Positions 25,450 to 40,390 of a stretch of 64,000 bases of DNA are shown here, in pieces (the first letter of the stretch is position 1; every line of letters begins with the position of its first letter). This DNA comes from Actinomycetota bacterium (GTDB lineage Bacteria; Actinomycetota; Thermoleophilia; Solirubrobacterales; Solirubrobacteraceae). The stretch spans positions 62,001 through 126,000 of the forward strand of contig JAFDWH010000019.1 in assembly GCA_018268595.1 (NCBI GenBank), read 5' to 3'. The notes beneath the pieces are model-generated. The model did no database searches and had not been told where the DNA came from. It was given only the letters and a program-made list of their open reading frames with translations. Both the position numbers and the translations under genes were made by a program.

Positions 25450-26133
25450 ATGACCGCCTCGGACCTGCTGCACGCGCGCCGCGTCGCGCCCTCGATCCTG
25501 TCGGCCGACTTCGCGCGCCTCGGCGCGCAGGTCCAGACCGTCATGGAGGCCGGCGCACGCGTGATCCACGTCGACGTGATGGACGGCCACTTCGTCCCGC
25601 CGATCACGATCGGCCCGCTCGTCGTCTCCGCGCTCGCCGACCAGGTCCACGACGCGGGCGGCATGCTCGACGTCCACCTGATGATCGAGCGCCCGGAGCG
25701 CCACGTCGCCGAGTTCGCGCGCGCGGGCGCCGACCTGATCACCGTGCACGCCGAGGCGACGCCGCACCTGCACTACGCGCTCCAGGCGGTCAAGCAGGCC
25801 GGCTGCGCGGCCGGCGCGGCGATCAACCCGGGCACGCCCGTGGAGGCGCTCGCCGACGTCGGCGAGCTGCTCGACCTCGCGCTCTGCATGTCCGTCAACC
25901 CGGGCTGGGGCGGCCAGCCGTTCATCGGCTCCTCGCTCGCGAAGCTCGCGCGGCTGCGCGAGTTGCTGCCGGCCGACGTCGCGATCGAGGTCGACGGCGG
26001 CGTGGACGCCACGACTGCTGGACCATGCGCCGAGCAGGGCGCTAGGCTGCTGGTCGCCGGGTCCGCCATCTTCGGCGCCGCAGATCCGGCCGCGGCCTAC
26101 GCGCAGATCGCCACGGCCGCCGGCGCCGCGTAG
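25450..26133 (+). CDS. rpe: Ribulose-phosphate 3-epimerase
   Basis: Rpe interconverts ribulose-5-phosphate and xylulose-5-phosphate. The 227-residue TIM barrel has VAPSILSADFARLG, the metal and catalytic segment HVDVMDGHFVPPITIGP, HLMIERP, MSVNPGWGGQPFI and IEVDGGVDATT. The family is unmistakable. It follows rsmB in many actinobacteria, and ribulose-5-phosphate is also a precursor for the ribBA product encoded at 40971. Confidence 0.96.
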   Translation: MTASDLLHARRVAPSILSADFARLGAQVQTVMEAGARVIHVDVMDGHFVPPITIGPLVVSALADQVHDAGGMLDVHLMIERPERHVAEFARAGADLITVHAEATPHLHYALQAVKQAGCAAGAAINPGTPVEALADVGELLDLALCMSVNPGWGGQPFIGSSLAKLARLRELLPADVAIEVDGGVDATTAGPCAEQGARLLVAGSAIFGAADPAAAYAQIATAAGAA

Positions 26134-26198
26134 CGCGCGGGGCGCACGGAGCTTCTCGCGCGCGGCGCAGATCGCGCAGAGAGCGAAAGGATCCGCCC

Positions 26199-26927
26199 GT
26201 GACCCCCACCCCGATCGTGACCGCCGTGGACCTGCGCCGCCGCTTCGGCGAGGGGGAGGCGGCCGTGGACGCGCTCGACGGCGTCTCGCTCGAGCTGCCG
26301 CAGGGGGCCTTCACGGCGATCATGGGCCCGTCGGGGTCCGGCAAGTCGACGCTGATGCACTGCCTCGCCGGCCTCGACAAGCCGACCGGCGGCAGCGTCT
26401 CGATCGACGGCGTCGACCTCAGCACGCTCGACGACAAGAAGCTCACCGAGCTGCGCCGCGACAAGGTCGGCTTCATCTTCCAGTCATTCAACCTGCTGCC
26501 GGTGCTGACGGCGCAGGAGAACATCGAGCTGCCGCTGAAGATCGCCGGGCGCGACGTCGACGCCGCGTGGCGCGACCGGCTGATCGACACGGTCGGCCTG
26601 CGCGACCGGCTGACGCACCACCCGTCGGAGCTGTCGGGCGGCCAGCAGCAGCGCGTCGCGGTGGCGCGCGCGCTGATCTCGAAGCCGGCGGTCGTGTTCG
26701 CCGACGAGCCGACCGGCAACCTCGACTCGCAGTCGAGCGCCGAGGTGCTGCGGCTGCTGCGCCAGTCGGTCGACGAGCTCGGCCAGACGGTCGTGATGGT
26801 CACGCACGAGGCGAACGCGGCGGCGATCGCCGACCGCATCCTCGTGCTGGCCGACGGCAAGATCGTGCACGACGGCCACGCCGGCTCCGCTGACGAGGTC
26901 CACGACCTCATGCGGACGGTCGGCTGA
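26199..26927 (+). CDS. ABC transporter ATP-binding protein (MacB/LolD type)
   Basis: This nucleotide-binding subunit has 242 residues. Walker A is MGPSGSGKSTLMHCLAGLD, the Q-loop FIFQSFNLLPVLTAQENI, the signature LSGGQQQRVAVARAL, Walker B VVFADEPTGNLDS, and the H-loop His is in VTHEANAAA. GTG 26199 has GAAAGGA upstream. The stop overlaps the permease ATG. MacB-type pairs act as mechanotransmitters or exporters from the outer face of the membrane; the substrate here is unknown. Confidence 0.93.
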   Translation: MTPTPIVTAVDLRRRFGEGEAAVDALDGVSLELPQGAFTAIMGPSGSGKSTLMHCLAGLDKPTGGSVSIDGVDLSTLDDKKLTELRRDKVGFIFQSFNLLPVLTAQENIELPLKIAGRDVDAAWRDRLIDTVGLRDRLTHHPSELSGGQQQRVAVARALISKPAVVFADEPTGNLDSQSSAEVLRLLRQSVDELGQTVVMVTHEANAAAIADRILVLADGKIVHDGHAGSADEVHDLMRTVG

Positions 26928-29491
26928 TGCTCGCGCTCTCGCTGCGGGGCATCGCGACACGCAAGCTGCGCACCGCGCTGACGGCGTTCGCAGTCGTCCT
27001 CGGCGTCGCGCTCGTGTCGGGCACGTACCTGCTGACGGACACGATCAACCACGCCTTCGACGAGGTCTTCCAGACGGCCAACAAGAGCGTCGACGTCGTC
27101 GTCACGCCGGCCAGACTGTTCGGCACGGGCAACGACCAGGCGTCCGTCGCGCCGAATCCGCTGCCCGCGTCGGTGCTCGACCAGGTGCGCCGCGTCCCGG
27201 GCGTCGCGTTCGCGTCCGGCGCGGTGCAGGGCATCGGCCAGATCTACGACAAGCACGACAAGCCGATCGTCACGAGCGGCCCGCCGATGTTCATCTTCGA
27301 CGTGCCGGCCAAGCGCTTCGACCCCTTCGTGTACGTCGACGGGCACGCGCCCCGCACGGCGGGCGAGGTCGCGCTCGACAAGTTCAGCGCCGACAAGGCC
27401 GGCTTCAAGCTCGGCGACAGCGTGCGGCTCTCCGGCGAGGGACCGCAGGAGCGCTTCAGACTCGTCGGGATCGCGAAGTTCGGCGACGCCAACTCGCTCG
27501 GCGGCGCCGCCATCTCGCTCGTGACGCGGCCGGTCGCCGAGCGCCTGCTCAACAGACACGACGAGTTCACGACGATCGACGTCGCCGCCGAGCCCGGCAC
27601 CACGCCGGACCAGCTCGCCGCGGCGATCCGCGCGGTGCTGCCGGCGAGAGTCGCGACGGTGCGCACCGGCCAGCAGCAGGCGAGATCGGACTCGCAGGAC
27701 ATCAAGGACAACCTCAAGTTCCTGCGCACGTTCCTGTTCGTGTTCGCGGGGATCGCGCTGTTCGTCGGCGCCTTCCTGATCGCCAACACGTTCTCGATCA
27801 CGGTCGCCCAGCGCGTGCGCGAGTTCGCGCTGCTGCGGATCATCGGCGCGAACCGCCGGCAGGTGCTGCGCGCGGTGATCGGCGAGGCGCTGCTGATCGG
27901 GCTGGCGGGGTCGCTCGTCGGCCTGCTCGCCGGCTTCGTGATCGCCCCCGGGCTGAAGGGGCTGTTCAAGGCGCTCGGCGCGGACCTGCCGTCGGCCGGC
28001 ACCGTGATCGAGTCGCGCACGGTGATCGTGTCGCTGCTGATCGGGACGGTCATCACGCTCCTCTCGGCGCTGGCGCCGGCGCTGCGCGCGACGCGCGTCC
28101 CGCCGATGGCGGCGCTGCAAGCGGCCGCGAGCCTGCCGCGCGGGCGCACGGCGCGCTGGCGCACGCCGCTGGCGGGCGCCGTCGCGCTGCTCGGCGTCGT
28201 GCTGGTGCTGCTCGGCCTGTTCGGCTCGGCGAGCGGCGGCGGCGCCGCCGGCCTCGTCGGCGCCGGCGCGGCGGTGATCTTCATCGGCGTCGGGCTGCTC
28301 GCCGCGCACATCGTCAAGCCGTTGTCGCTCGCGGTCGGGCTGCCGGTCGAGCGCCTCCGCGGCGTGTCGGGCCGGCTCGCGCGCGAGAACGCCTCGCGCA
28401 ACCCGCGCCGCACGGCGTCGACGTCCGCCGCGCTGATGATCGGCGTCGCGTTCGTCGCGTTCGTGACGATCTTCGCCGCGGGCCTGAAGGCGTCGATCGC
28501 AGACGCCGTGAACGTCGGCCTGAAAGGCCAGTTGATCGTGCAGACGAGCAACTTCCAGCCGGTCCCGGCGTCCGCCTCCAGAGCCCTCGCCGGGGTGCCG
28601 GGCGTCGGCACCGTGTCGGGCATCCGCTTCACGAAGGCGATCGTCGCCGGCAAGGGCAGACCGACCGTCACCGGCGTCGACCCCGCGACGATCGACGACG
28701 TCTTCAAGGTCGACTGGAAGCAGGGCTCGACCGCCACGCTGGCCGGGCTCGCGCCCGGCCAGGCGGTCGTCTCGAAGAGATGGGCGGACGGCAACGGCGT
28801 GCGCGTCGGGCAGCGACTCGCGCTCACCTCGCCGACCGGCGCGCACCTGACCGCAACCGTCACGGGCATCTACGACGACAAGGCGAACCTGCTCGCGGAC
28901 CTGACGGTGCCGAACGCCGTCGTCGTGCGGGACTTCAACGTTCCCGGCAGCGCCTTCCTGATGGCGACGACCGTCCCGGGCCTCGACGTGAAGGCGGTCA
29001 GAACGCGCGCCGAGCGGATCATGAGAGCGGCGTACCCGAGCCTCAAGGTGCAGACCGAGAGCGAGTTCGTCGCCGACCAGAAGGGCCAGGTCAACAGACT
29101 GCTCGCGCTCGTCTACGTGCTGCTCGCGCTGACGCTGCTGATCGCGCTGTTCGGGATCCTCAACACGCTGTTCCTGACGATCCACGAGCGCACACGCGAG
29201 CTGGGCATGCTGCGCGCGATCGGCACCTCGCGCAGGCAGGTCAAGCAGATGGTGCGCTGGGAGGCGGTGATCACCGCGCAGATCGGCGCGGTGCTCGGCG
29301 TCGTGCTGGGCGCGGTCTTCGCCGTGCTGGTGACGATCCCGCTCGAGAGCGAGGGCTTCACGATCTCGATCCCGATCGTGCAGCTCGTGGTCCTGCTGCT
29401 GCTCGCCGCCCTCTTCGGCGTCGTCGCCGCGATCTGGCCCGCGCGCCGCGCCGCGCGGCTCGACGTGCTGCAGGCGCTCGCGTACGAGTAA
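26927..29491 (+). CDS. ABC transporter permease with two FtsX domains
   Basis: The protein has 854 residues. An N-terminal helix (about 15-40) precedes a large extracellular MacB-like domain. The first FtsX domain is at about 265-400 and includes VREFALLRIIGANRRQVLRAV. A linker membrane pair follows (about 420-470), then a second extracellular domain and the second FtsX domain at about 720-850, with TRELGMLRAIGTSRRQVKQMV. Such duplicated permeases are common in actinobacteria. The gene starts inside the ATPase stop (TGATG). Unusually many AGA arginine codons are used. Confidence 0.92.
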   Translation: MLALSLRGIATRKLRTALTAFAVVLGVALVSGTYLLTDTINHAFDEVFQTANKSVDVVVTPARLFGTGNDQASVAPNPLPASVLDQVRRVPGVAFASGAVQGIGQIYDKHDKPIVTSGPPMFIFDVPAKRFDPFVYVDGHAPRTAGEVALDKFSADKAGFKLGDSVRLSGEGPQERFRLVGIAKFGDANSLGGAAISLVTRPVAERLLNRHDEFTTIDVAAEPGTTPDQLAAAIRAVLPARVATVRTGQQQARSDSQDIKDNLKFLRTFLFVFAGIALFVGAFLIANTFSITVAQRVREFALLRIIGANRRQVLRAVIGEALLIGLAGSLVGLLAGFVIAPGLKGLFKALGADLPSAGTVIESRTVIVSLLIGTVITLLSALAPALRATRVPPMAALQAAASLPRGRTARWRTPLAGAVALLGVVLVLLGLFGSASGGGAAGLVGAGAAVIFIGVGLLAAHIVKPLSLAVGLPVERLRGVSGRLARENASRNPRRTASTSAALMIGVAFVAFVTIFAAGLKASIADAVNVGLKGQLIVQTSNFQPVPASASRALAGVPGVGTVSGIRFTKAIVAGKGRPTVTGVDPATIDDVFKVDWKQGSTATLAGLAPGQAVVSKRWADGNGVRVGQRLALTSPTGAHLTATVTGIYDDKANLLADLTVPNAVVVRDFNVPGSAFLMATTVPGLDVKAVRTRAERIMRAAYPSLKVQTESEFVADQKGQVNRLLALVYVLLALTLLIALFGILNTLFLTIHERTRELGMLRAIGTSRRQVKQMVRWEAVITAQIGAVLGVVLGAVFAVLVTIPLESEGFTISIPIVQLVVLLLLAALFGVVAAIWPARRAARLDVLQALAYE

Positions 29492-29503
29492 GCGTTCTCT
29501 CCG

Positions 29504-29526
29504 CCGGGCGGCTTCGAGCCGCTCGG
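29504..29526 (+). terminator. Strong GC hairpin after the ABC permease
   Basis: CCGGGCGGC (29504-29512) pairs with GCCGCTCGG (29518-29526) around a TTCGA loop: nine base pairs including one G-U. No U-run follows, as is usual for terminator hairpins in GC-rich actinobacteria. Confidence 0.55.
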
Positions 29527-29648
29527 CGACGGGCGGCCCTGTCCTGGCTGGCCGACCGGCCGGCAATTCAACGCCGGCGTCCTTGATGTTGAGAAGTCGT
29601 TATGCGCTCGATCGCCTGGATTGGCGCTTTTCCGACGAGCGTTGGCCT

Positions 29649-29702
29649 AAATCAAATTTGGACGAATTGATTTGACAAACCGTCCGCTACGCCGCTTAGG
29701 AT
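29649..29702 (+). promoter_or_regulatory. Promoter and operator of the RHS gene in an AT-rich island
   Basis: The 29585-29720 stretch is much AT-richer than its surroundings. TTGACA (29672-29677) and TAGGAT (29697-29702) are 19 bases apart, or 18 if TTAGGA is used. An inverted repeat AAATCAA (29649-29655) with TTGATTT (29667-29673) overlaps the -35, a good position for a repressor. The untranslated leader would be about 50 bases and ends in the ribosome-binding site GAGGAG (29747-29752). Confidence 0.5.
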
Positions 29703-29757
29703 TCCCTTAGCAATCAACGCTCGTGCGGGTCGCGCGCGGGCCGATCGAGGAGTGCGA

Positions 29758-32700
29758 ATGGGGACCACCGTGCACCGGCGGCTGCGGCTGCTCATGCTTG
29801 CAATCGCGGTCGCGCTGGCAGGCGCGGCAGCATGGGCGCTGGCCGGCGGGCGCGGAGACGCGTCCGCCGCGGATCCAGGCGGCGGGCCGCCGCGCATGGA
29901 CGTCACCGCGCCGTTCCGCGGCGGGCATGAGATCCCCAGCCTGCGCACGGCCAATTCGCGCACGTACGTCGCGCCGAACGGCATGCACGTCGCGCGCGTC
30001 TCGGCAGGGCCGGTCAACTTCAAGGACGCCGACGGCAACTGGCAGCCGATCGACCCGCGCCTCGAGCGCGAGGGGTCGAGCTGGGTCAATCGCGCCAACG
30101 CGTTCCAGATCCAGATCCCGACCAGCCTCGGCGACGGCCCGGTGCGCGTCGCGCGCCACGGTCGCTGGATCGCGATGCGCCTGCGCGGCGACGACGTCCC
30201 CGCGACGGTCGACGGCTCCTCGGCCACCTTCAGCGGCGTCGCCGACGGCGTCACCGCCCGCTGGACCTCGCAGGCCCAGCAGCTCAAGGAGGACCTCGTG
30301 CTGGCCGACGCTGGCGCGCCGGCCTCCTACCTCTTCGACGTCTCGCTCAGCGACGGGCTGTTGCTGCGCGACGCGGCCGACGGCAGCGTCGAGGCGGTCG
30401 GCCCGCACGGCGGCGTCGCGTTCACGCTCGCCGCGCCGTTCGCGGTCGACGCCTCCGGCGACCGCGCCCCGGACGGCGCGGTGACGATGCGCGCACAGCG
30501 CGACGGCGCCGACTGGGTCGTGCGCGTCGCCGTCGCGCCGCGCTGGCTGCGCGCCGACGACCGCGCCTTCCCGGTCACGATCGACCCGAGCGTCTACGCC
30601 TACCCGGTCGGCGACTGCACGATCGACCAGGAGACGCCGACGACGGCCAACTGCAGCTCCACGACGCTGACAGTCGGACACGAGAACGGCACGACGCTGC
30701 ACGACCACCGCGCGCTGCTGTGGTTCGACGTCGCCAACGCCGTCCCGAGTGCCGCGAACGTGCTGTCGGCCACGCTGTGGGCGCACGCCAGCGCGAAGTC
30801 CGGCACGAGCACGTCGCCGATCGACGCGTACCGCGTCACACGCGACTGGTCGGCCGACGTGACCTGGAACAACGCGGACAGAGCGACGAGCTGGACGAGC
30901 GCCGGCGGCGACGTCGCCGCCAGCCCCGAGGACACCTCCGCGGCGCCGGTCGTCAACGACTGGACCGGCTGGAACGTCACCGACCTCGTGCGCGAGTGGC
31001 TCGACGGCAGCTACCCCGACTACGGGGTGCTGCTGAAGGACCAGGGCTCCGCCAGCGTCAACGCGACGAGATTCGACTCGAACGAGGTCCTCGGCGGCTC
31101 GACGCGGCCCGGGATCGACATCACCTACTTCCCGCGCACCGGGCGGCAGGACGACTACACGTTCGACACGCAGGCGCTGTCGGACCGTCAGACGCTGTCC
31201 GTCAACCCCGCCGGCGGCAACATGCTGCTGAGCTCGCGCGACCTCGAGATCAGAGGCACCGGCCTCGACCTGTCGCTCGAGCGCGCGTTCAACTCGACCG
31301 ACGACTGGACCGGCGCGCTCGGCTTCGGCAATCGCCTGTCGGTCGGCACGGACGTGACGCTGCTCGAGTGCGACAGCACCGAGTCGATGTGCTTCTACGG
31401 CCCGAGCGGCACGCACGTGCGCTTCAAGAAGCTCGCCGACGGCAGCTTCGAGGCGCCGCCGGGAGCGAACGCGAGACTCGTCAGAAACAGAGACGGCAGC
31501 TACGCGCTGACGTTCCTGCGCAGCGGCCTCGTCTACAGATTCTTCTCCGGCCAGAACACGTTCGTGACCGACATCGTCGACCCGAACGGCAACACGCTGC
31601 ACTTCGACTACACGTCGAGCCGCCTGTCCCAGATCGTCGACTCGCAGGGCCGCAGAATCGCGGTCAGCCGCAACGGCTCGGGCGACATCACGCAGATCCA
31701 GGATCCGAGCGGGCGGGCGTGGAGATACGGCTACTCGCTGACCGGGCGCAAGCTCACGTCGGTGACCGACCCGGAGGGGAACGTCACGCAGTACCAGTTC
31801 GACAGAAGCGACAACATCGACCTCATCACCGACGCGCGCGGCAACGCGATCCACGTCGCGTACGACGGCTCGGACCGCGTGACGAGCGTCACGCGCACGG
31901 TCGACGGCGGCTCGAACGACGTCGTCACGTCGTTCGCGTACAGCAGCGCGAGTAGCCCGTGCGGCGCGAGAGGCGACGTCGGCAAGACGGTCGTCACGAA
32001 CCCGCGCAGCAAGACGACGACGTACTGCTGGAACGCGCTCGGCCAGGTCACCAGCACGTTCGACGCGCTCGGGCGCAAGACGACGCAGTCGTTCACGAGC
32101 AACCTCGACCACAACCAGATGACCGACTACGCGGACACCGCGAACCCGGCGACGACGGACCTCGACTACAACGCCAACAACGACCTCACCAGAGCGGCGC
32201 AGCCGTCGGGCGAGCAGCAGACGGTGTCGTACTGGTCGGCGGCGAGCAACACGAACGACCCGCTGCGCGACCACCGCGTGCAGAGCACCACGGACGCGAA
32301 CGGCGTCGACCAGTACTTCGACTACGACAATGCCGGCAACCTGACGTCGGTGAAGGACGACACGACGACGCCGCGCAACCAGGCGACGTTGACGTACAAC
32401 GGCAACGGCACGCTCGCCTCGTTCACCGACGGCGAGTCACACAGAACGTCGTTCTCGTACGACGCCAGCGGCAACCTCAGAGAGGTCACGCCGCCGAGCG
32501 TCAGCTCACCCGGGACGCTGGGCACCACGCAGTACACGTACGACTCGCTCAGCCGCGTCGACACCGTCACAGACGGCCGCGGGGAGACGCTCACGTACAG
32601 CTACGACGGGCTCGACCGGATCACGAGAGTCGAGGCGGAGGACGGGAGCTGGATCGCGTACACGTACGACGCGAACGGCAACCTGGCCACGCGCGAGGAC

Positions 32701-34149
32701 TCCGGCGGGTCGAGAACGAGCTACACGTACGACAAGCTCAACCGGCAGACCGAAGAGGACCTGCCTGGAGCGGCCTACAACCAGTACGGCTACGACAAGA
32801 ACGGCAACGTCACGAGCATCATCGACCAGTCCGGCACGGTCACGTACGGCTACGACGACGTCGACCGCGTGACCTCGACCGTCTCCCCGAAGCCGGGCGG
32901 CGGCACCGACACCGTCACGTACTCCTACACCGACCCGGACGCGAGAAGCGCGGTCACGGTGCGCACGGCGACGCTGCCGGGCTCGACGACCCAGCGAGTC
33001 GAGCGCGACCTGTCCGGCAAGATCACCGACGTGCTGCTGAAGGACAGATCGAGCGCGACGTTGCAGGAGCGCAGCTACAGCTACCTCAACGGCTCGACGC
33101 AGACCGATCTCGTGCAGACGATGCTCGACGAGGCCGGCAACAGAACGACGTACACCTACGCCGACAGAACGGAGAACAGCGGCCGCCTGCTGAAGGCGCG
33201 CACGGAGGACGGATCGAGTGCGCTCGTGACCGAGTACCGCTACGCCTACGACAAGGCCGGCAACCGCCTCACGCGCGAAGTCGAGACCGGCAGAGGCACG
33301 ACCACCACGACGTACGCGTACAACGCGGCCAACCAGCTGTGCTGGCGCTACGTCGGCACATCCTCGAACGACTGCGCGACCGCCCCCGGCGGCGCGACGA
33401 CGTTCACCTACGACGCCGCCGGCCAGCAGCTCACCGGCGACAACACGCTCACGTGGGACCGCTACGGCCGGCTCGCGAGCGTCGACAGAACGAGCCTCGG
33501 CTTCTTGTCGCGCACGAACGATGCCCTCAGCGCCTTCGGCTCGACCGCGCTGCAGGACAACGCGCTCGGCTTCAGCCGCAGCGATGACGGCAGAACGGTC
33601 ACGAGCATCGTGCGCGACCCCAACACCAACGCGGTCGTGAGCCAGAACGACGGCACGAACAAGCGCTGGTACACCGGGGACAACGTCGGCTCGACGATCG
33701 GCCTCACGGACGACACCGGAGCGCTGGTTCGCACGTACGGCTACGACCCCGACGGGACCTCGACCACCAGCGGAAGCGGCCCCGTCGCGCTCGCCGGCTT
33801 CGCCGGCGGCCAGTCGGTCGGCTCGAGCGGGCTCTACCACTTCGGCGCCCGCTTCTACGATCCGCGGACCGGGCGCTGGACCTCGATCGACCCGCTCCGC
33901 CACGACTCGGATCTGACGCAGGCGAACCTGTACGGCTACGTCGGCCAGAACCCGATGAACCTCGTGGACCCAACCGGAGCCGGCCTCTTCCGCTGGATCG
34001 AGAAGATCGCGGTCAAGGTCGGGCTGCGCGGCGGCGGTGGGGTCATGTACGCCGCTTGCTACGGCTGGACGATCTCCAAGAAGGGCGTCAACGTGCACAA
34101 CGCGATCCTGACCGGCGTGCAGTGCTCGCCGATCGGGTTCTTCTTCTAG
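29758..34149 (+). CDS. Secreted WapA-like RHS/YD-repeat protein (putative polymorphic toxin)
   Basis: The protein has 1463 residues. A signal peptide (basic start, hydrophobic LLMLAIAVALAGAAAWALA, cleavage near ASA) leads to a domain with VNFKDADGNWQPIDPRL. A DNRLRE-type domain follows at about residues 282-455 (VTDLVREWLDGSYPDYGVLLKD). Many YD repeats lie between about 560 and 1290 (YTYDANGNLATRED, YGYDKNGNVTSI). The RHS core starts near 1359 (FGARFYDPRTGRWTSIDPL and YGYVGQNPMNLVDPTG). Only about 55 hydrophobic residues remain after DPTGA, an unrecognised tip. The architecture is like Bacillus WapA contact-dependent toxins. ATG 29758 follows GAGGAG. AGA codons are very frequent. Confidence 0.88.
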   Translation: MGTTVHRRLRLLMLAIAVALAGAAAWALAGGRGDASAADPGGGPPRMDVTAPFRGGHEIPSLRTANSRTYVAPNGMHVARVSAGPVNFKDADGNWQPIDPRLEREGSSWVNRANAFQIQIPTSLGDGPVRVARHGRWIAMRLRGDDVPATVDGSSATFSGVADGVTARWTSQAQQLKEDLVLADAGAPASYLFDVSLSDGLLLRDAADGSVEAVGPHGGVAFTLAAPFAVDASGDRAPDGAVTMRAQRDGADWVVRVAVAPRWLRADDRAFPVTIDPSVYAYPVGDCTIDQETPTTANCSSTTLTVGHENGTTLHDHRALLWFDVANAVPSAANVLSATLWAHASAKSGTSTSPIDAYRVTRDWSADVTWNNADRATSWTSAGGDVAASPEDTSAAPVVNDWTGWNVTDLVREWLDGSYPDYGVLLKDQGSASVNATRFDSNEVLGGSTRPGIDITYFPRTGRQDDYTFDTQALSDRQTLSVNPAGGNMLLSSRDLEIRGTGLDLSLERAFNSTDDWTGALGFGNRLSVGTDVTLLECDSTESMCFYGPSGTHVRFKKLADGSFEAPPGANARLVRNRDGSYALTFLRSGLVYRFFSGQNTFVTDIVDPNGNTLHFDYTSSRLSQIVDSQGRRIAVSRNGSGDITQIQDPSGRAWRYGYSLTGRKLTSVTDPEGNVTQYQFDRSDNIDLITDARGNAIHVAYDGSDRVTSVTRTVDGGSNDVVTSFAYSSASSPCGARGDVGKTVVTNPRSKTTTYCWNALGQVTSTFDALGRKTTQSFTSNLDHNQMTDYADTANPATTDLDYNANNDLTRAAQPSGEQQTVSYWSAASNTNDPLRDHRVQSTTDANGVDQYFDYDNAGNLTSVKDDTTTPRNQATLTYNGNGTLASFTDGESHRTSFSYDASGNLREVTPPSVSSPGTLGTTQYTYDSLSRVDTVTDGRGETLTYSYDGLDRITRVEAEDGSWIAYTYDANGNLATREDSGGSRTSYTYDKLNRQTEEDLPGAAYNQYGYDKNGNVTSIIDQSGTVTYGYDDVDRVTSTVSPKPGGGTDTVTYSYTDPDARSAVTVRTATLPGSTTQRVERDLSGKITDVLLKDRSSATLQERSYSYLNGSTQTDLVQTMLDEAGNRTTYTYADRTENSGRLLKARTEDGSSALVTEYRYAYDKAGNRLTREVETGRGTTTTTYAYNAANQLCWRYVGTSSNDCATAPGGATTFTYDAAGQQLTGDNTLTWDRYGRLASVDRTSLGFLSRTNDALSAFGSTALQDNALGFSRSDDGRTVTSIVRDPNTNAVVSQNDGTNKRWYTGDNVGSTIGLTDDTGALVRTYGYDPDGTSTTSGSGPVALAGFAGGQSVGSSGLYHFGARFYDPRTGRWTSIDPLRHDSDLTQANLYGYVGQNPMNLVDPTGAGLFRWIEKIAVKVGLRGGGGVMYAACYGWTISKKGVNVHNAILTGVQCSPIGFFF

Positions 34150-34150
34150 C

Positions 34151-34486
34151 GTGAGGGCCACGCGGCGAGCGGTCGAGCATGTTCCGGCCTGCGTCCTGAC
34201 GCAGGGCTACGTGCTCGGCCTGCTCGCCGCACGGCTGCTGGGAGATCCGGAGACGCAGCTCGCGCCGCTGTTGGCGTCGATCCTCGTCTCGTGCCTCGGC
34301 CTCGGCCTCGTGCTGATGCGCCGCAGGCAGGCCGGGGAGATCCTCGGCATCCTGTTCGTCGTCGCCGGCGCGGTCGCCGTGGTGCCGCTCCCGACGCCGG
34401 CGCGACTCGCGATCGTCCTGGTGGCGCCGGCGACGCTCGTCTACCTGGCGTGCGACCGGCGACCGGAGACCGGCGGCCAGCCCTAA
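34151..34486 (+). CDS. Small membrane protein, candidate immunity partner of the RHS protein
   Basis: The protein has 111 residues and three or four hydrophobic segments, including YVLGLLAARLLG, LLASILVSCLGLGLVLM, ILGILFVVAGAVAVVPL and LAIVLVAPATLVYLA. GTG 34151 is one base after the RHS stop. Immunity genes of polymorphic toxins usually sit exactly there, and a membrane immunity protein would suit a membrane-active tip. No family is recognised and no direct evidence of immunity exists. Its TAA overlaps the stop of the convergent flippase gene. Confidence 0.6.
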   Translation: MRATRRAVEHVPACVLTQGYVLGLLAARLLGDPETQLAPLLASILVSCLGLGLVLMRRRQAGEILGILFVVAGAVAVVPLPTPARLAIVLVAPATLVYLACDRRPETGGQP

Positions 34487-35868
34487 CCGCGCCGGTACAA
34501 CCCCAGCAAGAGACCGCTGAGCAGGAACGTCGCGCCGAAGTAGCCGGTCTCGACGCGCAGCACCTCGTCGGCGACGATCGGGGAGAGCATCCAGGCGACG
34601 AACAGGGCCGCGCTCAGCAGCCACGCCACCGCCGCGAGGGCGGCGCGGTTGCGGGCGAGGGCGGCCTGGTTGAGCGTGCCGGCGATCAGGTGGAAGCCCA
34701 TCCCGATCGCGACGAGCGCGAGCCCGCCGCGCTGGTACGTGAAGCCCTTGTCGCCCAGCACGGCGGTCATCACGGCCGGGCCGATCGCGAGCAGGCCGAG
34801 TGCGCAGGCGCCCGCGAAGCCGGCGATCGCGAGCACCGTCTTGCGCACCGCCGCGGCGAACTCGTGCTCGCTGCCCTGCGCGGTCATCGCCGTGAGGTGG
34901 GGGAGGATCGAGGTCTGGATCGCCTGGAACAGCTGCAGCGGCGCGCGCACGATCATCAGCACGTTGAAGACGAAGCCGGCGAGCGCGGCCGTCGTCTTGG
35001 CATTGACGATCAGCACCGCGGCGTTCATCAGCGCCTGCTCGGCGAGCATGATCGCGAAAACGGCGACCGCGAAGCGCGAGCCGCGCGCGATCGAGAGGTC
35101 GGCGACCGCCTCCTCGACGTCCGCGTGCGCCGGGCCCTCGCCCGCCGCGTCGATCACCGGCGCTTCGCGCTCGGAGACGGACGGGCGGTGCGTCTGCGCC
35201 TGCACATGCCCGAACGCGAACGGCACGACCACGAGCGAGACGAACGGCGCGACCGCCATGCCGGTCGCGATCGCCGTCTGGCCGGACGTGATCCCGATCA
35301 CGGCCGCGACGGCGAACAGGAAGCGCGAGGTCGACTCGAGGAACACGAGCCCGCCGTAGAGGCCGAAGCGCTGGTGCCCGGCGAGCCAGCCGCGCGCGAA
35401 GTAGCTGCCGGCGTAGGCCAGCACGCCGACGACGAGGATCCAGTAGAGCGCGCTCTGGCCGCTGAACAGGTGCGCCTCGATGCGCGGCCGCAGCGGCAGC
35501 ACGACGGCCAGGAACAGCAGCGCGAACGTGAGCTGGATCGTCGCCGGCACGCGCAGCGGATGGCCCTCCAGCCCGCGCGCGCGGCGGTCGGCGATCGTGC
35601 GCGAGAGCAGCTGCTCGATCGGCCGGTAGATCACGCACAGGATCACGTACATGACCGACCACAGCAGGCTCACCTGCCCGTAGGCGGTCGAGTCGAGCTG
35701 ATGGCTCGCGAGCGCGAGGTAGAGGAACGTGAAGATGCCGGTCGAGGCGATCCCGACCGTCAGGATGCGCGCGCCGGAGCCGTACGAGCGCGCGCCGCCC
35801 CCGTCGGGCGCGGCGGCCGGCCGGCCGGCGGCGTCCGCGCTCGTCGAGCTAGGTGCCGAGCCGGACAA
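34483..35868 (-). CDS. Polysaccharide flippase-like membrane protein (MATE/Wzx superfamily)
   Basis: The protein has 461 residues and about 12-14 membrane helices, with a first segment ILTVGIASTGIFTFLYLALASHQL and a WSVMYVILCVIYRPIEQLLSR loop. A long cytoplasmic loop rich in acidic residues splits the two halves near residue 215-250. It resembles lipid-linked oligosaccharide flippases. The only start found is TTG 35868, which overlaps the upstream methyltransferase gene by 20 bases; a shorter form is possible. With its neighbours it probably exports a cell-surface glycan. Confidence 0.75.
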   Translation of the reverse strand: MSGSAPSSTSADAAGRPAAAPDGGGARSYGSGARILTVGIASTGIFTFLYLALASHQLDSTAYGQVSLLWSVMYVILCVIYRPIEQLLSRTIADRRARGLEGHPLRVPATIQLTFALLFLAVVLPLRPRIEAHLFSGQSALYWILVVGVLAYAGSYFARGWLAGHQRFGLYGGLVFLESTSRFLFAVAAVIGITSGQTAIATGMAVAPFVSLVVVPFAFGHVQAQTHRPSVSEREAPVIDAAGEGPAHADVEEAVADLSIARGSRFAVAVFAIMLAEQALMNAAVLIVNAKTTAALAGFVFNVLMIVRAPLQLFQAIQTSILPHLTAMTAQGSEHEFAAAVRKTVLAIAGFAGACALGLLAIGPAVMTAVLGDKGFTYQRGGLALVAIGMGFHLIAGTLNQAALARNRAALAAVAWLLSAALFVAWMLSPIVADEVLRVETGYFGATFLLSGLLLGLYRRG

Positions 35869-36475
35869 GCAGCATCGTCCACGGGAAGGGCGAGCGCTTC
35901 TCGACGACCTCGCCGTGCTGCGAGAGCAGCCGCACGAAGGAGCGCTTCGACCAGTGGTTGACGTGTCCGGGGGTGTTGCCGAGGTCGGAGAGATACGCGC
36001 CGCGCGCCATGTTCAGCATGCGCCACAGCGGCTCTCGGGGGACCGACACGAGCAGGTGCCGTCTCGCGACGCGCGCCATCTCGGCGACCGTGTGCGCAGG
36101 GTCGGGCACATGCTCCAGCACCTCGATCGCGCACGCCATGTCGAACTCGCCGTCGACGAACGGCATGTTCTCCGCGAGCATCGTGCGGTACTCGAGGTTC
36201 GGCCGCTGGCGCGTGGCCCACTCGGCCTTCAGCTTCTCGTCGTCGAGGTCGATCCCGACGATCCGCCGCTCGCCGAGCTGCTCCGCCCACTGGTGCGTGA
36301 GCACCCCCTCGCCGCAGCCGACGTCCAGCACCGACTGCGGCGCCGCCTGCGCGAACAGCTGCGCGAGCGTGCCCTCGAAGTTCGCCATCAACCGCCGCAC
36401 GACGGGGTTCGTCGAGCCGTACTTGTCGAACGTGTTGCCGGTCGGAACGGCTTCGGTCGCGTGCGTCGCGCTCAT
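35849..36475 (-). CDS. Class I SAM-dependent methyltransferase
   Basis: The protein has 208 residues. Motif I is SVLDVGCGEGVL (about 48-59), motif II VGIDLDDEKL, and the post-motif is EFDMACAIEVLEHVPDPAHTVAEMARV. The family is that of small-molecule or sugar methyltransferases; the substrate is unknown. The ATG overlaps the glycosyltransferase stop (ATGA) and its end overlaps the flippase start. It forms a three-gene operon likely to modify and export an envelope glycan or lipid. Confidence 0.85.
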   Translation of the reverse strand: MSATHATEAVPTGNTFDKYGSTNPVVRRLMANFEGTLAQLFAQAAPQSVLDVGCGEGVLTHQWAEQLGERRIVGIDLDDEKLKAEWATRQRPNLEYRTMLAENMPFVDGEFDMACAIEVLEHVPDPAHTVAEMARVARRHLLVSVPREPLWRMLNMARGAYLSDLGNTPGHVNHWSKRSFVRLLSQHGEVVEKRSPFPWTMLLVRLGT

Positions 36476-37488
36476 ACCTCGATCGTCTCCCGCTTGAGCT
36501 TGTCCTCGCTGCTCTCGGCGCCGCGCTCGTAGTGCGACGGCGCGATCCCGAGCGCCAGCTCGATCCGCCGCACGCGCTCGAACGTGCGCTGCGAGAGCGT
36601 GCGCTGCGCGGCCAGCAGGTCGCCGATCACGCCGAGCGCGCCCAGCAGCATCGCGGCGATGAACAGCACCGCCCCGAGGATCAGCGACTGCACGTGGCCG
36701 GCGCCCTCGCCGCCGATGTACGCGACGAGGAAGCGCACCCACACGCCCAGCGCGAGCAGTCCCATCAGGACGGCGCCGCCCCAGAACACCTTCAGCGGCT
36801 CGTACTGCGCGTAGATGCGGAAGATCGAGATCGCGTTGCGGCGCACGTAGGCGCCCATCGACGGGAACAGGCGCGATTCGCGCGTCTTCGGGTTCGTGCG
36901 GATCTGGACGTGGTCGACCGCGACGAGCTGCTTGCCGGCCTGGATGATCGTCTCGAGCGTGTAGGTGAATCTGGAGACGACCTGCATCTGCAGCGCGGCC
37001 TCGCGGTTGTAGGCGCGGAAGCCGGAGGTCGTGTCGGGGACGGTCGTCTCGGACGCCTGGCGCACGACCCACGAGCCGAGCTTCTGGAGCGACTTCTTGA
37101 GCGGGGAGAAGTGCTCGATCTGCTCGACCTGGCGGTCGCCGACGACCATGTCGGCGCGCCCGGCGACGATCGGCGCGACGAGCTTCGGGATGTCGCGCCC
37201 GTCGTACTGGTTGTCGGCGTCGGTGTTGACGATCACGTCCGCGCCGAGCTTGAGCGCGGCGTCGAGCCCCGCCTGGAAGCCGGCCGCGAGGCCCTTGTTG
37301 TTCGTCAGCTTGACGATGTGGTCGACGCCGTTCGCGCGCGCGACCTCGATCGTGCGGTCGCGCGAGCCGTCGTCGATCACGAGCCACTCGACCGTCTCGA
37401 AGCCGTCGACCGCGCGCGGCAGGTCGGCGAGCGTCCCGGGCAGCGTCTGCTCCTCGTTGAAGCAGGGAATCTGGATGATCAGCTTCAT
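36472..37488 (-). CDS. Family 2 glycosyltransferase with C-terminal membrane helices
   Basis: The protein has 338 residues. The GT-A domain starts MKLIIQIPCFNEEQTLPGTL and has WLVIDDGSRDRTIEVA, IVNTDADNQYDGRDIP (metal-binding DxD) and DTTSGFRAYNREAAL. Two hydrophobic segments at about 235-300 anchor it. It resembles dolichol/polyprenyl-phosphate hexose synthases. It is the first gene of the minus-strand glycan operon. It is divergent from the membrane glycosyltransferase at 37537, and the two share a 48-base promoter region. Confidence 0.9.
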   Translation of the reverse strand: MKLIIQIPCFNEEQTLPGTLADLPRAVDGFETVEWLVIDDGSRDRTIEVARANGVDHIVKLTNNKGLAAGFQAGLDAALKLGADVIVNTDADNQYDGRDIPKLVAPIVAGRADMVVGDRQVEQIEHFSPLKKSLQKLGSWVVRQASETTVPDTTSGFRAYNREAALQMQVVSRFTYTLETIIQAGKQLVAVDHVQIRTNPKTRESRLFPSMGAYVRRNAISIFRIYAQYEPLKVFWGGAVLMGLLALGVWVRFLVAYIGGEGAGHVQSLILGAVLFIAAMLLGALGVIGDLLAAQRTLSQRTFERVRRIELALGIAPSHYERGAESSEDKLKRETIEV

Positions 37489-37513
37489 GGCAGGGCGAGG
37501 TCGACCGCGTGGT

Positions 37514-37519
37514 CTAGAC
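37514..37519 (+). promoter_or_regulatory. -10 element TAGACT in the divergent glycosyltransferase promoter
   Basis: TAGACT is 17 bases before ATG 37537 and lies in the palindrome GTCTAGAC (37512-37519). No clear -10 was found for the leftward gene. Confidence 0.3.
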
Positions 37520-37536
37520 TCGCGCCGCAGTATTCC

Positions 37537-39246
37537 ATGCGCCGCCCCGACCGCACGACCCTCGCGCTGGCCGGCGTGCTGCTGGGGGCGCTCGCACTCC
37601 GCCTGTGGGGCATCGGGCACGGCCTGCCGTTCTCCTACAACGCCGACGAGGAGGGGCATTTCGTCCCCGTCGCGATCGGCTTCTTCGGCCACGACCTCGA
37701 CCCGGGCTACTTCCTCAACCCGCCCGGCTACACCGAGCTGCTGTACGCGATCTACGCGGTCTGGTTCGGCGGCCGCGGGGCGGTCGCGCACGCGTACCTG
37801 AGCGACCCCTCCGAGGTCTTCCTGATCGCGCGCGCGACGGTCGCGCTGCTCGGCGTCGCGGCGGTCTGGCTGCTGTACCTCGCGGGCGCGCGCCTGTTCG
37901 ACCGCGCCGTCGCGCTGCTGGCCGCGGCGCTCGCCGCGGTCGCGTTCCTGCCCGTCTTCTACAGCCACCTGGCGCTCAACGACGTGCCGGCGACGGCGCC
38001 GGCGACGCTCGCGCTGCTGGGCGCCGCGCTGGTCCTGCGCGGCGGCGGCACGAAGGCGGCGCTGCTGGGTGGGCTGGGCGCCGGCCTCGCGGCCGGCACG
38101 AAGTACACGGCAGGGATCGTGCTGCTGCCGCTGCTGACCGCGGTCGCGGTCACGGCACGCGGGCAGCGCGAGCCGCTGCGCCGCGTGCTGCTCGCGCCGG
38201 CGGCCGCCGCGTGCGCCGCCGCGCTCGCCGGCTTCCTGCTCGCGAACCCGTACGCGCTGCTGGACTTCGAGGCGTTCCACGCGGGCGTCGCCAGACAGCG
38301 CCGCCTGACGAGCGCGGACGAGCTCGCCAAGCTCGGCCTCACGCAGCGCAACGGGATCGTCTACTACCTGTGGTCGCTGACGTGGGGGCTCGGCTGGGTC
38401 CCGGCGCTGGCCGCGCTCGGCGGAGCGCTGCGGCTGCTGGCGCGCGACCGCCGGCTCGCGCTCGTGCTGCTGCCCGCGCCGTTCCTGTACGTCCTCTACA
38501 TGGGCGCGCAGGAGCGCTACTTCGGCCGCTGGCTGCTGCCGGTGCTGCCGCTCGCGATCCTGCTCGCCGCGTACGCCGGCGTCGCGCTCGCCCGCGCGCT
38601 CGCCACCCGCGCGCCCCGCCTCGCGGCGCCTGCCGCGGCGCTCGTCGCGCTCGCGCTGCTGGCGCAGGGGCTCGTCGCCTCGCTGCACGTCGACCGGGTG
38701 CTCGCGCGCCCGGACACGCGCGGCAGCGCGCGCACGTGGCTGCTCGCGCACGTGCCGGCCGGCGCGAAGGTCGTGATCGAGCCGTTCGTGCCCGCGCGCT
38801 GGCTGGAGGACCCCGACCGCGCCGACCCCGCCACCCCGGGCGGCGGCCGCTGGCGCCTGTGGGACACGGCGCGCGCCGACGTCGACGACGCCGGCCGGCC
38901 GTTGCCGCACGGCCGCACCCGCTTCGTGAAGGTCGACAAGTACGAGCGCACGCTGCGCCCCGCGCTGATCGACGCGTACGTCGCGCAGGGCTACTGCTGG
39001 GTCGTGACCGGCTCGACGCAGTTCTCGCGCGCGTACGTGCAGCCGCGGGAGGTGCCGCAGGCGCTCGCCTACTACGCCGCGCTGCGCCGCCGCGCCGACA
39101 CCGTCGCGCGCTTCACGCCCTACCGCGACGGCGCGACGGCACCCCGCTTCAACTTCGACTGGTCGTTCGACTACTACCCGCTCGCGTACGCGCGGCCGGG
39201 CCCGCTGATCGTCGTGCACCGCCTGCGCGGCGGGGTCTGCGGCTGA
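37537..39246 (+). CDS. Integral membrane glycosyltransferase (ArnT/PMT-like)
   Basis: The protein has 569 residues and about eleven membrane helices. The first extracytoplasmic loop has the acidic YNADEEGHF and LNPPGYTELLY segments seen in GT-C enzymes that use polyprenyl-phosphate sugars. A soluble C-terminal part from about residue 390 contains KVDKYERTLRPALIDAYVAQGYCWVVTGSTQFSRAY. The donor is plausibly made by the divergent GT2 enzyme. The acceptor is unknown. It ends 22 bases before the ribD ATG. Confidence 0.82.
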   Translation: MRRPDRTTLALAGVLLGALALRLWGIGHGLPFSYNADEEGHFVPVAIGFFGHDLDPGYFLNPPGYTELLYAIYAVWFGGRGAVAHAYLSDPSEVFLIARATVALLGVAAVWLLYLAGARLFDRAVALLAAALAAVAFLPVFYSHLALNDVPATAPATLALLGAALVLRGGGTKAALLGGLGAGLAAGTKYTAGIVLLPLLTAVAVTARGQREPLRRVLLAPAAAACAAALAGFLLANPYALLDFEAFHAGVARQRRLTSADELAKLGLTQRNGIVYYLWSLTWGLGWVPALAALGGALRLLARDRRLALVLLPAPFLYVLYMGAQERYFGRWLLPVLPLAILLAAYAGVALARALATRAPRLAAPAAALVALALLAQGLVASLHVDRVLARPDTRGSARTWLLAHVPAGAKVVIEPFVPARWLEDPDRADPATPGGGRWRLWDTARADVDDAGRPLPHGRTRFVKVDKYERTLRPALIDAYVAQGYCWVVTGSTQFSRAYVQPREVPQALAYYAALRRRADTVARFTPYRDGATAPRFNFDWSFDYYPLAYARPGPLIVVHRLRGGVCG

Positions 39247-39255
39247 CGTGCCGCG

Positions 39256-39261
39256 TATCCT
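39256..39261 (+). promoter_or_regulatory. -10 element TATCCT of the riboflavin operon
   Basis: TATCCT is exactly 7 bases before ATG 39269, with no Shine-Dalgarno sequence. The gap leaves no room for an FMN riboswitch. Confidence 0.55.
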
Positions 39262-39268
39262 CACGGAC

Positions 39269-40390
39269 ATGCCGTTGGGGACCGAGACGGATCGCCTGCA
39301 CCTCGCGCGCACGCTGGAGCTGGCGGCGCAGGGGCGCGGGCGCGTCAGCCCGAACCCGCTGGTCGGCGCGGTGATCGCGCGCGAGAGCACGGTGCTGGGC
39401 GAGGGCTGGCACACCGCCTACGGCGAGGCGCACGCGGAGGTCGAGGCGCTGCGCGCCGCCGCCGGGTCGGACCTGAGCGACGCGACGCTGTACGTCTCGC
39501 TCGAGCCCTGCTGCCACACCGGCAAGCAGCCGCCGTGCACCGACGCGATCGTCGCGTCCGGCATCCGCCGCGTCGTCGTCGCCTCCGACGACCCGACGGA
39601 GAAGGCGTCCGGGCGCGGGCTCGGCATCCTGCGCGACGAGGGGATCGACGTCGAGGTCGCCGACGGCGAGCTGGCCGCGCGCGCCCGCCTGCTGAACCAG
39701 CCGTTCCGCAAGCTCGCGCGCACCGGCCGCCCGTGGGTCCTGTTCAAGTCGGCGATGACGCTCGACGGCAAGGTCGCCACGCGCGCGGGCGACTCCAAGT
39801 GGATCTCCAACGAGGACAGCCGCCGCCGCGCGCACCGCTGGCGCGCCGAATGCGACGCGGTCGCGGTCGGGATCGGCACGGCGCTCGCCGACGACCCGCA
39901 GCTGACGGCGCGCCTGCCCGACGTGGCGCGCCAGCCGCGCCACGTCGTGTTCGACGCGACCGCGCGCCTGCCGCTCGACTCGCAGCTCGTCGCCGCCGCG
40001 CCGGAGATCCCGCTGACGGTCGTCGTCTCGCGCGCGGCGCCGCGCTCGGCGACCGACGCGCTCGAGACGCACGGCGCGGAGGTGATCGTCGCGACCGGCG
40101 AGCACGAACAGGCGCGCGTGCAGTCGGCGCTCGACCAGCTCGGCGCGGCGGGCGTCAGCTCGATGCTGCTGGAGGGCGGCCCGAGGCTGGCGGGCGCGTT
40201 CTTCGACGCCGGCGAGATCGACGAGCTGCGGCTGTTCCTCGCGCCGCTCGTGCTGGGCGGGCGCACTGCGCGCGACCCGCTCGAGGGCGAGGGCGTCGAG
40301 ACGATCGCCGACGCCGTGCGCGCGCTGACGCTCGAGTGCGAGTGCGTCGCGGGCGACATCCTCGTCTCCGCGCGCCTGAGGGAGTGGTGA
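39269..40390 (+). CDS. ribD: Bifunctional pyrimidine deaminase/reductase
   Basis: RibD deaminates and then reduces the pyrimidine product of GTP cyclohydrolase II. The deaminase half has [17 protein letters not shown] and the zinc cysteines in [15 protein letters not shown]. The reductase half has [27 protein letters not shown] and [16 protein letters not shown] 39269 (373 residues) is preferred over GTG 39248 because TATCCT lies between them. The stop overlaps the ribE ATG (TGATG). Confidence 0.95.

What the first reader, a model, noticed from the sequence alone, without database searches (positions are those of the whole stretch)
29758..34486. WapA-like secreted RHS protein with an unrecognised tip and an adjacent membrane protein
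Signal peptide, DNRLRE-type domain, YD repeats and RHS core define a secreted polymorphic toxin scaffold. The tip after DPTGA is only about 55 residues, hydrophobic, with two Cys. The next gene begins 1 base later and encodes a 111-residue membrane protein. A short hydrophobic tip plus a membrane partner suggests a membrane-targeting toxin and its immunity protein, or a truncated toxin module.
Basis: partly seen in the sequence, partly recalled or inferred. Interest (0 to 1): 0.55.

Follow-up and report, generated by a model that had tools for sequence, protein, structure and literature searches.

The report
RHS toxin tip with membrane partner
A soil bacterium carries a large secreted protein that ends in a short, cysteine-containing, probably membrane-attacking toxin tip, and the small membrane protein encoded right after it travels with that tip between different carriers, as expected of a toxin and its antidote.

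Summary
Observation confirmed. Window 29758-34149 encodes a secreted WapA-like RHS protein (signal peptide, DNRLRE, DUF6531, YD repeats, Rhs core) with a 56-residue tip; the next ORF (34151-34486) starts one base later and encodes a hydrophobic 111-residue protein. The tip has two clear homologues: Conexibacter arvalis (an orphan cassette behind another RHS gene) and a Solirubrobacteraceae MAG. Each is followed by a membrane protein ending in [YF]xxCDR, as here. The partner was not found without the tip in 146 family genomes. The pair sits between two conserved genes whose gap lacks it in 4 of 4 relatives. All three tips end in the same CxPxGF motif, so the tip is complete, not truncated.

Tip and partner match no Pfam, NCBIfam, PHROGs or PDB entry. 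In this bacterial family short tips with at least 2 Cys are followed by a small membrane ORF in 17 of 22 cases, against 7 of 65 for longer tips; an independent phylum sample agrees only weakly (5 of 9 against 19 of 86).

Best reading: a new membrane-directed toxin tip with membrane immunity, working like Rhs Tse5/Tsi5. Toxicity and mechanism are inferred, not shown.

The parts
29758..34149 (+). Secreted WapA-like RHS protein, 1463 aa (scaffold plus tip)
29758..29874 (+). Putative N-terminal signal peptide (Arg-rich start, hydrophobic core, AxA-like site); hydropathy and eye only
30613..31125 (+). DNRLRE / Disaggr_repeat domain (residues 286-456)
   Evidence: NCBIfam NF033679 E 8.8e-28, Pfam PF06848 E 1.4e-11
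31201..31425 (+). DUF6531 (residues 482-556)
   Evidence: Pfam PF20148 E 2.6e-8
33742..33978 (+). Rhs-associated core, ends in DPTG
   Evidence: TIGR03696; the preceding Asp motif is DPLR, so DPxGx18DPxG is only partly matched
33979..34146 (+). Toxin tip, 56 aa: basic N-half, then AACYGW...CSPIGFFF
   Evidence: homologous tips in C. arvalis and a Solirubrobacteraceae MAG
34151..34486 (+). Partner membrane protein, 111 aa, 3-4 predicted membrane segments, C-terminal YLACDR; proposed immunity protein
26927..29491 (+). Upstream conserved ABC permease (FtsX/MacB), left border of the variable site
34483..35868 (-). Downstream conserved convergent gene (flippase-like by eye; no Pfam match at E 1), right border of the variable site

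Best explanation
The locus is a polymorphic toxin unit. The RHS scaffold is exported through Sec and carries a short C-terminal tip behind the Rhs core. On contact with a neighbouring cell the tip is released; its basic segment and its two-cysteine core then insert into, or act at, the cytoplasmic membrane and depolarise or permeabilise it. The adjacent small membrane protein sits in the producer's own membrane and blocks the tip. Shown here: the architecture, the homologous tips, the co-occurrence of tip and partner on different carriers, their joint absence at the empty site, and the association of short Cys-containing tips with membrane partners. Inferred: toxicity, membrane target, role of the cysteines, immunity, and delivery.
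For: Tip homology: a query from the RHS end found the C. arvalis tip, E 0.0035 for that genome; pairwise BLAST E 3e-8; a two-row profile then found the MAG tip, E 2.1e-5; shuffle z 9.6-11.4, 0 of 2000 shuffles as good, for each of 3 pairs. Partner: directly downstream in 3 of 3 (+1 base, 4-base ATGA overlap, about +94 bases); BLAST window vs C. arvalis E 3e-4; [YF]xxCDR near the C-terminus in 3 of 3, in 0 of 16 other membrane partners and in 1 of 4,994 six-frame stretches of window and survey loci, that one being the window's partner. Partner profile: 3 of 146 family genomes strong, the same three, the rest E 0.013 or worse. Empty site: no RHS or partner match in 4 of 4 relatives. Class trend: 17 of 22 short Cys>=2 tips against 7 of 65 long tips, Fisher p 1.1e-8; random positions 43 of 2000.
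Against: Partner similarity is weak beyond window-C. arvalis: z 3.4 and 1.5 for the other two pairs, no better than unrelated membrane partners (controls up to 5.1). Only three members of the tip family are known, and two of them are orphan or frame-disrupted cassettes. The tip has no clear transmembrane helix, so it may act at a membrane surface or on a membrane protein. The length and distance limits of the survey were set after looking at part of the same data; the independent phylum sample is weaker (5 of 9 against 19 of 86, p 0.042). AlphaFold models are of low confidence (pLDDT 54 and 60).
Confidence: 0.72

Rival explanations
1. Toxin-immunity pair, but the tip is not a pore former: it binds and blocks a membrane-embedded target (a transporter, lipid II cycle enzyme or secretion protein), and the partner masks that target or the tip.
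For: The tip has no stretch hydrophobic enough for a typical membrane helix and a specific conserved motif (AACxGW, CxPxGF), more like a binding surface than a generic pore.
Against: The basic N-half (net +5, +18, +16 for the three tips) and the membrane partner fit direct membrane action equally well. There is no target evidence.
Confidence: 0.17
2. Truncated or decayed toxin module: the original tip was lost and the short C-terminus is a remnant.
For: The tip is short and matches no domain library.
Against: Three divergent tips end with the same motif right before the stop; many other short tips with their own membrane partners exist in the family; codon composition is normal.
Confidence: 0.05
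3. The downstream ORF is an unrelated small membrane protein, or not a gene; its position is coincidence.
For: An ORF with two hydrophobic segments starts near a random position in 43 of 2000 draws; partner similarity is modest.
Against: Co-occurrence in 3 of 3, the shared [YF]xxCDR end, absence elsewhere in 146 genomes.
Confidence: 0.05

Closest known systems
Tse5/Tsi5 (P. aeruginosa Rhs pore-forming effector and two-segment membrane immunity protein; PMC9637101 and PMC10684867, passages read)
   Same: RHS/YD-repeat carrier, C-terminal membrane-acting tip, membrane immunity protein
   Different: T6SS-delivered, tip of about 149 residues (1169-1317), Gram-negative; here a Sec-type WapA-like protein with a 56-residue Cys-containing tip in an actinobacterium; no match in the PDB profile search
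WapA of Streptococcus suis and Bacillus (PMC12704120, passages read)
   Same: Sec-exported YD-repeat carrier, exchangeable tip, downstream immunity gene, truncated orphan cassettes downstream
   Different: B. subtilis tips named there are tRNases; membrane-acting WapA tips were not described in the passages read
Tox-WTIP (Zhang et al. 2012, PMC3482391, section 36 read)
   Same: Small hydrophobic non-enzymatic tip on RHS/PVC carriers, proposed pore former
   Different: Defined by RxxR and Wx[ST]IP, seen only in proteobacteria; Wx[ST]IP is absent in all three tips
Ntox38/Imm56 (same paper and section)
   Same: Very short (33-43 aa) actinobacterial tip without catalytic residues, with a conserved C-terminal Pro-Gly signature
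   Different: PXhhG signature and WXG/T7SS carrier; here P-x-G-F and an RHS carrier; no Pfam match
Membrane-depolarising T7SS toxins with membrane immunity, e.g. EsxX, TspA/TsaI (PMC12744356, passages read)
   Same: Gram-positive antibacterial toxins that depolarise membranes, membrane-bound immunity
   Different: LXG/T7SS carriers with an extended glycine zipper; this tip has only a short GGGG run
CDI ionophore toxins (PMC11630599, abstract and part 1 of the discussion read)
   Same: Fast-diverging membrane toxins with equally diverse immunity proteins (~30% identity within groups)
   Different: Five-helix ionophore domain plus entry domain on CdiA; much larger

Membership tests
WapA-like RHS polymorphic toxin | YD repeats and Rhs core domain before a variable C-terminus | tested here: met
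   tips behind similar scaffolds differ
WapA-like RHS polymorphic toxin | N-terminal Sec signal peptide | tested here: inconclusive
   hydrophobic stretch after Arg residues; no predictor available
WapA-like RHS polymorphic toxin | Aspartyl autoprotease motif DPxGx18DPxG (defined for T6SS-type Rhs) | tested here: inconclusive
   both Asp-Pro pairs present but the first is DPLR and the spacing is longer (residues 1378 and 1404)
WapA-like RHS polymorphic toxin | Specific immunity gene directly downstream that moves with the tip | tested here: met
   3 of 3 tips have a similar partner; protection itself not tested
WapA-like RHS polymorphic toxin | Growth inhibition by the tip, rescue by the partner | not testable with these tools
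   bench work needed
Tox-WTIP | RxxR in helix 1 and Wx[ST]IP in helix 2 | tested here: not met
   all three tips read: GWTIS, GWKLS, GWRVS; no Wx[ST]IP
Ntox38 | C-terminal PXhhG and WXG carrier | tested here: not met
   P-[IVF]-G-F end and RHS carrier; no Pfam match at E 5
Tse5 toxin family | Sequence relation to Tse5-CT | tested here: inconclusive
   profile search of PDB chain sequences gave only chance hits; Tse5 itself was not fetched
Glycine-zipper toxins | Repeated GxxxG in a hydrophobic helix | tested here: not met
   one GGGG run only, no hydrophobic 19-residue window

The most novel reading that the evidence does not exclude
In Solirubrobacteraceae the RHS/WapA scaffold serves as a carrier for a large, fast-evolving set of bacteriocin-like peptides: short (about 50-116 residues), cysteine-containing tips that attack the membrane, each paired with a tiny membrane immunity protein whose gene overlaps or abuts the tip's stop codon. 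This would join two worlds kept apart so far, peptide bacteriocins and giant polymorphic toxins, with the window's tip family as one of many.
Probability: 0.4. Interest if true: 0.65.

Novelty: new variant of a known kind. Interest (0 to 1): 0.5.

Why it matters
The 2012 survey of polymorphic toxins listed one pore-forming tip type, from proteobacteria (PMC3482391, abstract passage and section 36). Here a little-studied actinobacterial lineage shows a new short tip family with its own membrane partner, and signs of a whole class of such pairs. If confirmed, each pair is a compact, testable membrane toxin and antidote, and the RHS shell would be a delivery device for peptides that look like bacteriocins. 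It also gives a simple genome rule (short Cys-bearing RHS tip, abutting small ORF with two to four membrane segments) for finding more.

Tried and rejected
Truncated-toxin reading: rejected because three divergent tips share the same end. Domain libraries gave nothing for tip or partner at curated cut-offs: Pfam, NCBIfam, PHROGs; PADLOC gave nothing for the RHS protein and the partner. Weak partner hits such as TgpA_N are below cut-off and read as generic membrane similarity. PDB profile searches gave no useful match. Wider tip searches in order and class samples (232 and 399 genomes, overlapping each other and the family sample) added no member beyond the three; weaker hits there (E 0.0005-0.05) were not followed one by one. 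The fetched loci from calls up to 36 were screened by protein motif and showed only the three. A DNA pattern scan of genomes of 84,980 species found the two known relatives and one Omnitrophota stretch (L126), which the protein motif screen did not recover in an open frame and which I read as chance; the pattern needs TGC and a Phe/Tyr codon, so it misses variants. AlphaFold models were too poor for a fold search, so none was run. Promoter and terminator scans gave nothing above shuffles. Partner homology by alignment score alone was not accepted as proof: unrelated membrane partners reach z 5.1. Glycine-zipper membership was considered and rejected for this tip.

Full report
What is there. 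The window lies in a 3.57 Mb genome of 31 contigs. The RHS gene runs from ATG 29758 to 34149 and encodes 1463 residues. It has a hydrophobic N-terminus read as a signal peptide, a DNRLRE domain, DUF6531, YD repeats and an Rhs core that ends in DPTG. The tip is the last 56 residues, 1408-1463, with two Cys and net charge +5. The next ORF, GTG 34151 to 34486, starts one base after the RHS stop and encodes 111 residues with several hydrophobic segments. A low-confidence AlphaFold model shows four helices (mean pLDDT 54), which fits four membrane spans by eye. GC by codon position fits coding.

The tip is a family. A 102-residue query from the RHS end matched 28 of 100 relatives, nearly all by the core; one match was confined to the tip: C. 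arvalis, query residues 55-101, E 0.0035 for that genome. Pairwise BLAST gives E 3e-8 over 44 residues. A two-row profile then found a third tip, E 2.1e-5, among 146 family genomes; it lies in a Solirubrobacteraceae MAG, contig JAUYGN010000050.1. The other matches had E 0.003 or worse; the next best ones that I read (L056, L057, L058, L060) showed no RHS tip. Local alignment scores of the three pairs lie 9.6 to 11.4 standard deviations above shuffles (0 of 2000 each). Invariant columns are AAC-x-GW-xx-S and C-x-P-x-GF, the last motif two to four residues before the stop in all three. The tip is therefore complete. A strongly basic stretch precedes the motif in the two relatives (net +18 and +16 for 93 and 92 residues), more weakly here. 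Samples of the order (232 genomes) and class (399) gave no further member that I could confirm. A DNA pattern scan of 84,980 species found only the two known relatives and one unrelated-looking stretch.

The partner moves with it. In C. arvalis the tip's stop and the partner's start overlap (ATGA) and the partner has 105 residues. In the MAG a membrane ORF of 96 residues begins about 94 bases after the stop; another ORF begins at +2 there and the RHS frame itself is broken, so that locus may be decayed. All three partners end in a last hydrophobic segment followed by [YF]xxCDR. That motif is in 0 of 16 other membrane partners and in 1 of 4,994 six-frame stretches of 40-300 residues from the window and survey loci, the one being the window's own partner. 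The motif was picked after seeing the sequences, so this is support, not a blind test. By alignment score only the window-C. arvalis pair stands out (z 6.4, 0 of 2000; BLAST E 3e-4); window-MAG (z 3.4, 19 of 2000) and C. arvalis-MAG (z 1.5, 165 of 2000) do not exceed what unrelated membrane partners give (up to 5.1). Fast divergence of immunity proteins is not unusual: CDI ionophore immunity proteins typically share about 30% identity within a group (PMC11630599, abstract). A partner profile found these three in 146 family genomes and nothing else below E 0.013. The single partner sequence had no match better than E 1.9e-4 in 100 relatives, and all seven weak hits lay in longer open frames.

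Different carriers, empty site. The window's tip ends a full-length RHS gene. In C. arvalis it ends a 174-codon frame behind a full-length RHS gene with another tip (107 residues, 4 Cys, own two-segment partner of about 62 residues) and a further fragment. Such displaced cassettes are known as Rhs orphans (PMC12704120, passages). In the window's genome the pair lies between a permease gene and a convergent flippase-like gene. Both are close neighbours in 4 (G003-G006) of the 6 other genus genomes searched; one has matches on separate contigs and one has neither at the cut-off. Gaps between the matches are about 5.0 kb here and about 3.4, 0.77, 0.71 and 0.06 kb in the four. A translated search finds neither the RHS protein nor the partner in any of these 4 gaps at E 0.1. 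The unit is thus gained or lost as one.

A wider class. In 146 family genomes, Rhs core ends give 102 hits in 43 genomes. Of these 97 were usable (4 had no stop before the end of the contig or stretch, 1 was not fetched); 91 distinct tips have at least 46 residues. Of 22 tips with 46-116 residues and at least two Cys, 17 are followed, within -40 to +60 bases of the stop, by an ORF of 40-200 codons with at least two hydrophobic segments; of 65 longer tips, 7 are (Fisher p 1.1e-8). Most spacings are -4, -1 or +1 to +15. The five misses are G039:C12, G049:C1 (one segment), two in G135, and the MAG member itself, whose partner lies at about +94. Of 4 short tips with fewer than two Cys, 1 qualifies. 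Random window positions give 43 of 2000. The limits were set after viewing about 30 of these loci. I therefore repeated the test with fixed limits on 107 hits outside the family, chosen by hand from the rows that one search printed (more were not printed): 105 usable, 102 distinct; 5 of 9 short Cys tips against 19 of 86 long tips, p 0.042. The direction holds, but the effect is smaller and n is low.

How it most likely works. By analogy with Tse5, whose Rhs shell holds a membrane-active tip and whose immunity protein Tsi5 has two predicted membrane segments (PMC9637101 and PMC10684867, passages), the scaffold would deliver the tip to a neighbour's cytoplasmic membrane and the partner would protect the producer. 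The two conserved Cys could form a disulfide outside the cell (inference). Whether the tip forms a pore or binds a membrane protein is open: its core is not hydrophobic enough to call a membrane helix.

Known or new. Tip and partner match no curated family searched. Tox-WTIP, Ntox38 and glycine-zipper toxins were compared on their defining motifs and these were not met. Paper searches for Conexibacter with Rhs (0 papers), WapA with immunity and membrane depolarisation (4 listed, none on WapA membrane tips by title and abstract start), and YD-repeat with toxin, immunity protein, Actinobacteria and transmembrane (0) found no report; some searches listed related systems only, judged by title and abstract start except for the papers named. 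The library holds open-licence papers only. I file it as a new variant of a known kind: an RHS polymorphic toxin with a new, short, Cys-containing, membrane-directed tip.

Noticed in passing
Window site 29492-34482; L355, L356, L357: The same permease-flippase gap holds type II toxin-antitoxin genes in relatives: an RHH antitoxin plus PIN toxin in C. arvalis and a Phd/YefM antitoxin plus PIN toxin in G003 (Pfam), and a similar antitoxin-like ORF in G004 (by eye). It looks like a landing site for small toxin modules.
   Followed up: partly
L359 (G005:C2:56000-75000), minus strand: C. arvalis RHS array: a full-length gene with a 107-residue Cys-containing tip and a ~62-residue membrane ORF, then two orphan core-tip fragments, the last being the window's tip family.
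   Followed up: partly
G000:C13:324378-324611 (L048) and G000:C22:59297-59524 (L147): Two other RHS core ends in the same genome: a 177-residue tip without an abutting membrane ORF, and a 134-residue tip followed at -11 by a 149-residue ORF with four hydrophobic segments.
   Followed up: no
L020 (G050:C179), L177, L178, L189 (G011:C115, C114): Short contigs packed with repeated RHS core ends, each with a different short Cys-bearing tip and a 52-90 residue two-segment ORF near or over the stop; a good place to watch cassette shuffling.
   Followed up: partly
G159 (10 Rhs core matches in one genome): Several G159 tips share an almost identical start (SSWNPFSESFWTEGNFISES...) but differ in length and have different downstream ORFs, suggesting recombination inside the tip.
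   Followed up: no
Window, e.g. 26042-29566 (-) and 36472-39414 (-): High GC (about 70%) gives many long open frames on both strands; several listed ORFs of over 500 codons overlap real genes and are unlikely to be genes.
   Followed up: no
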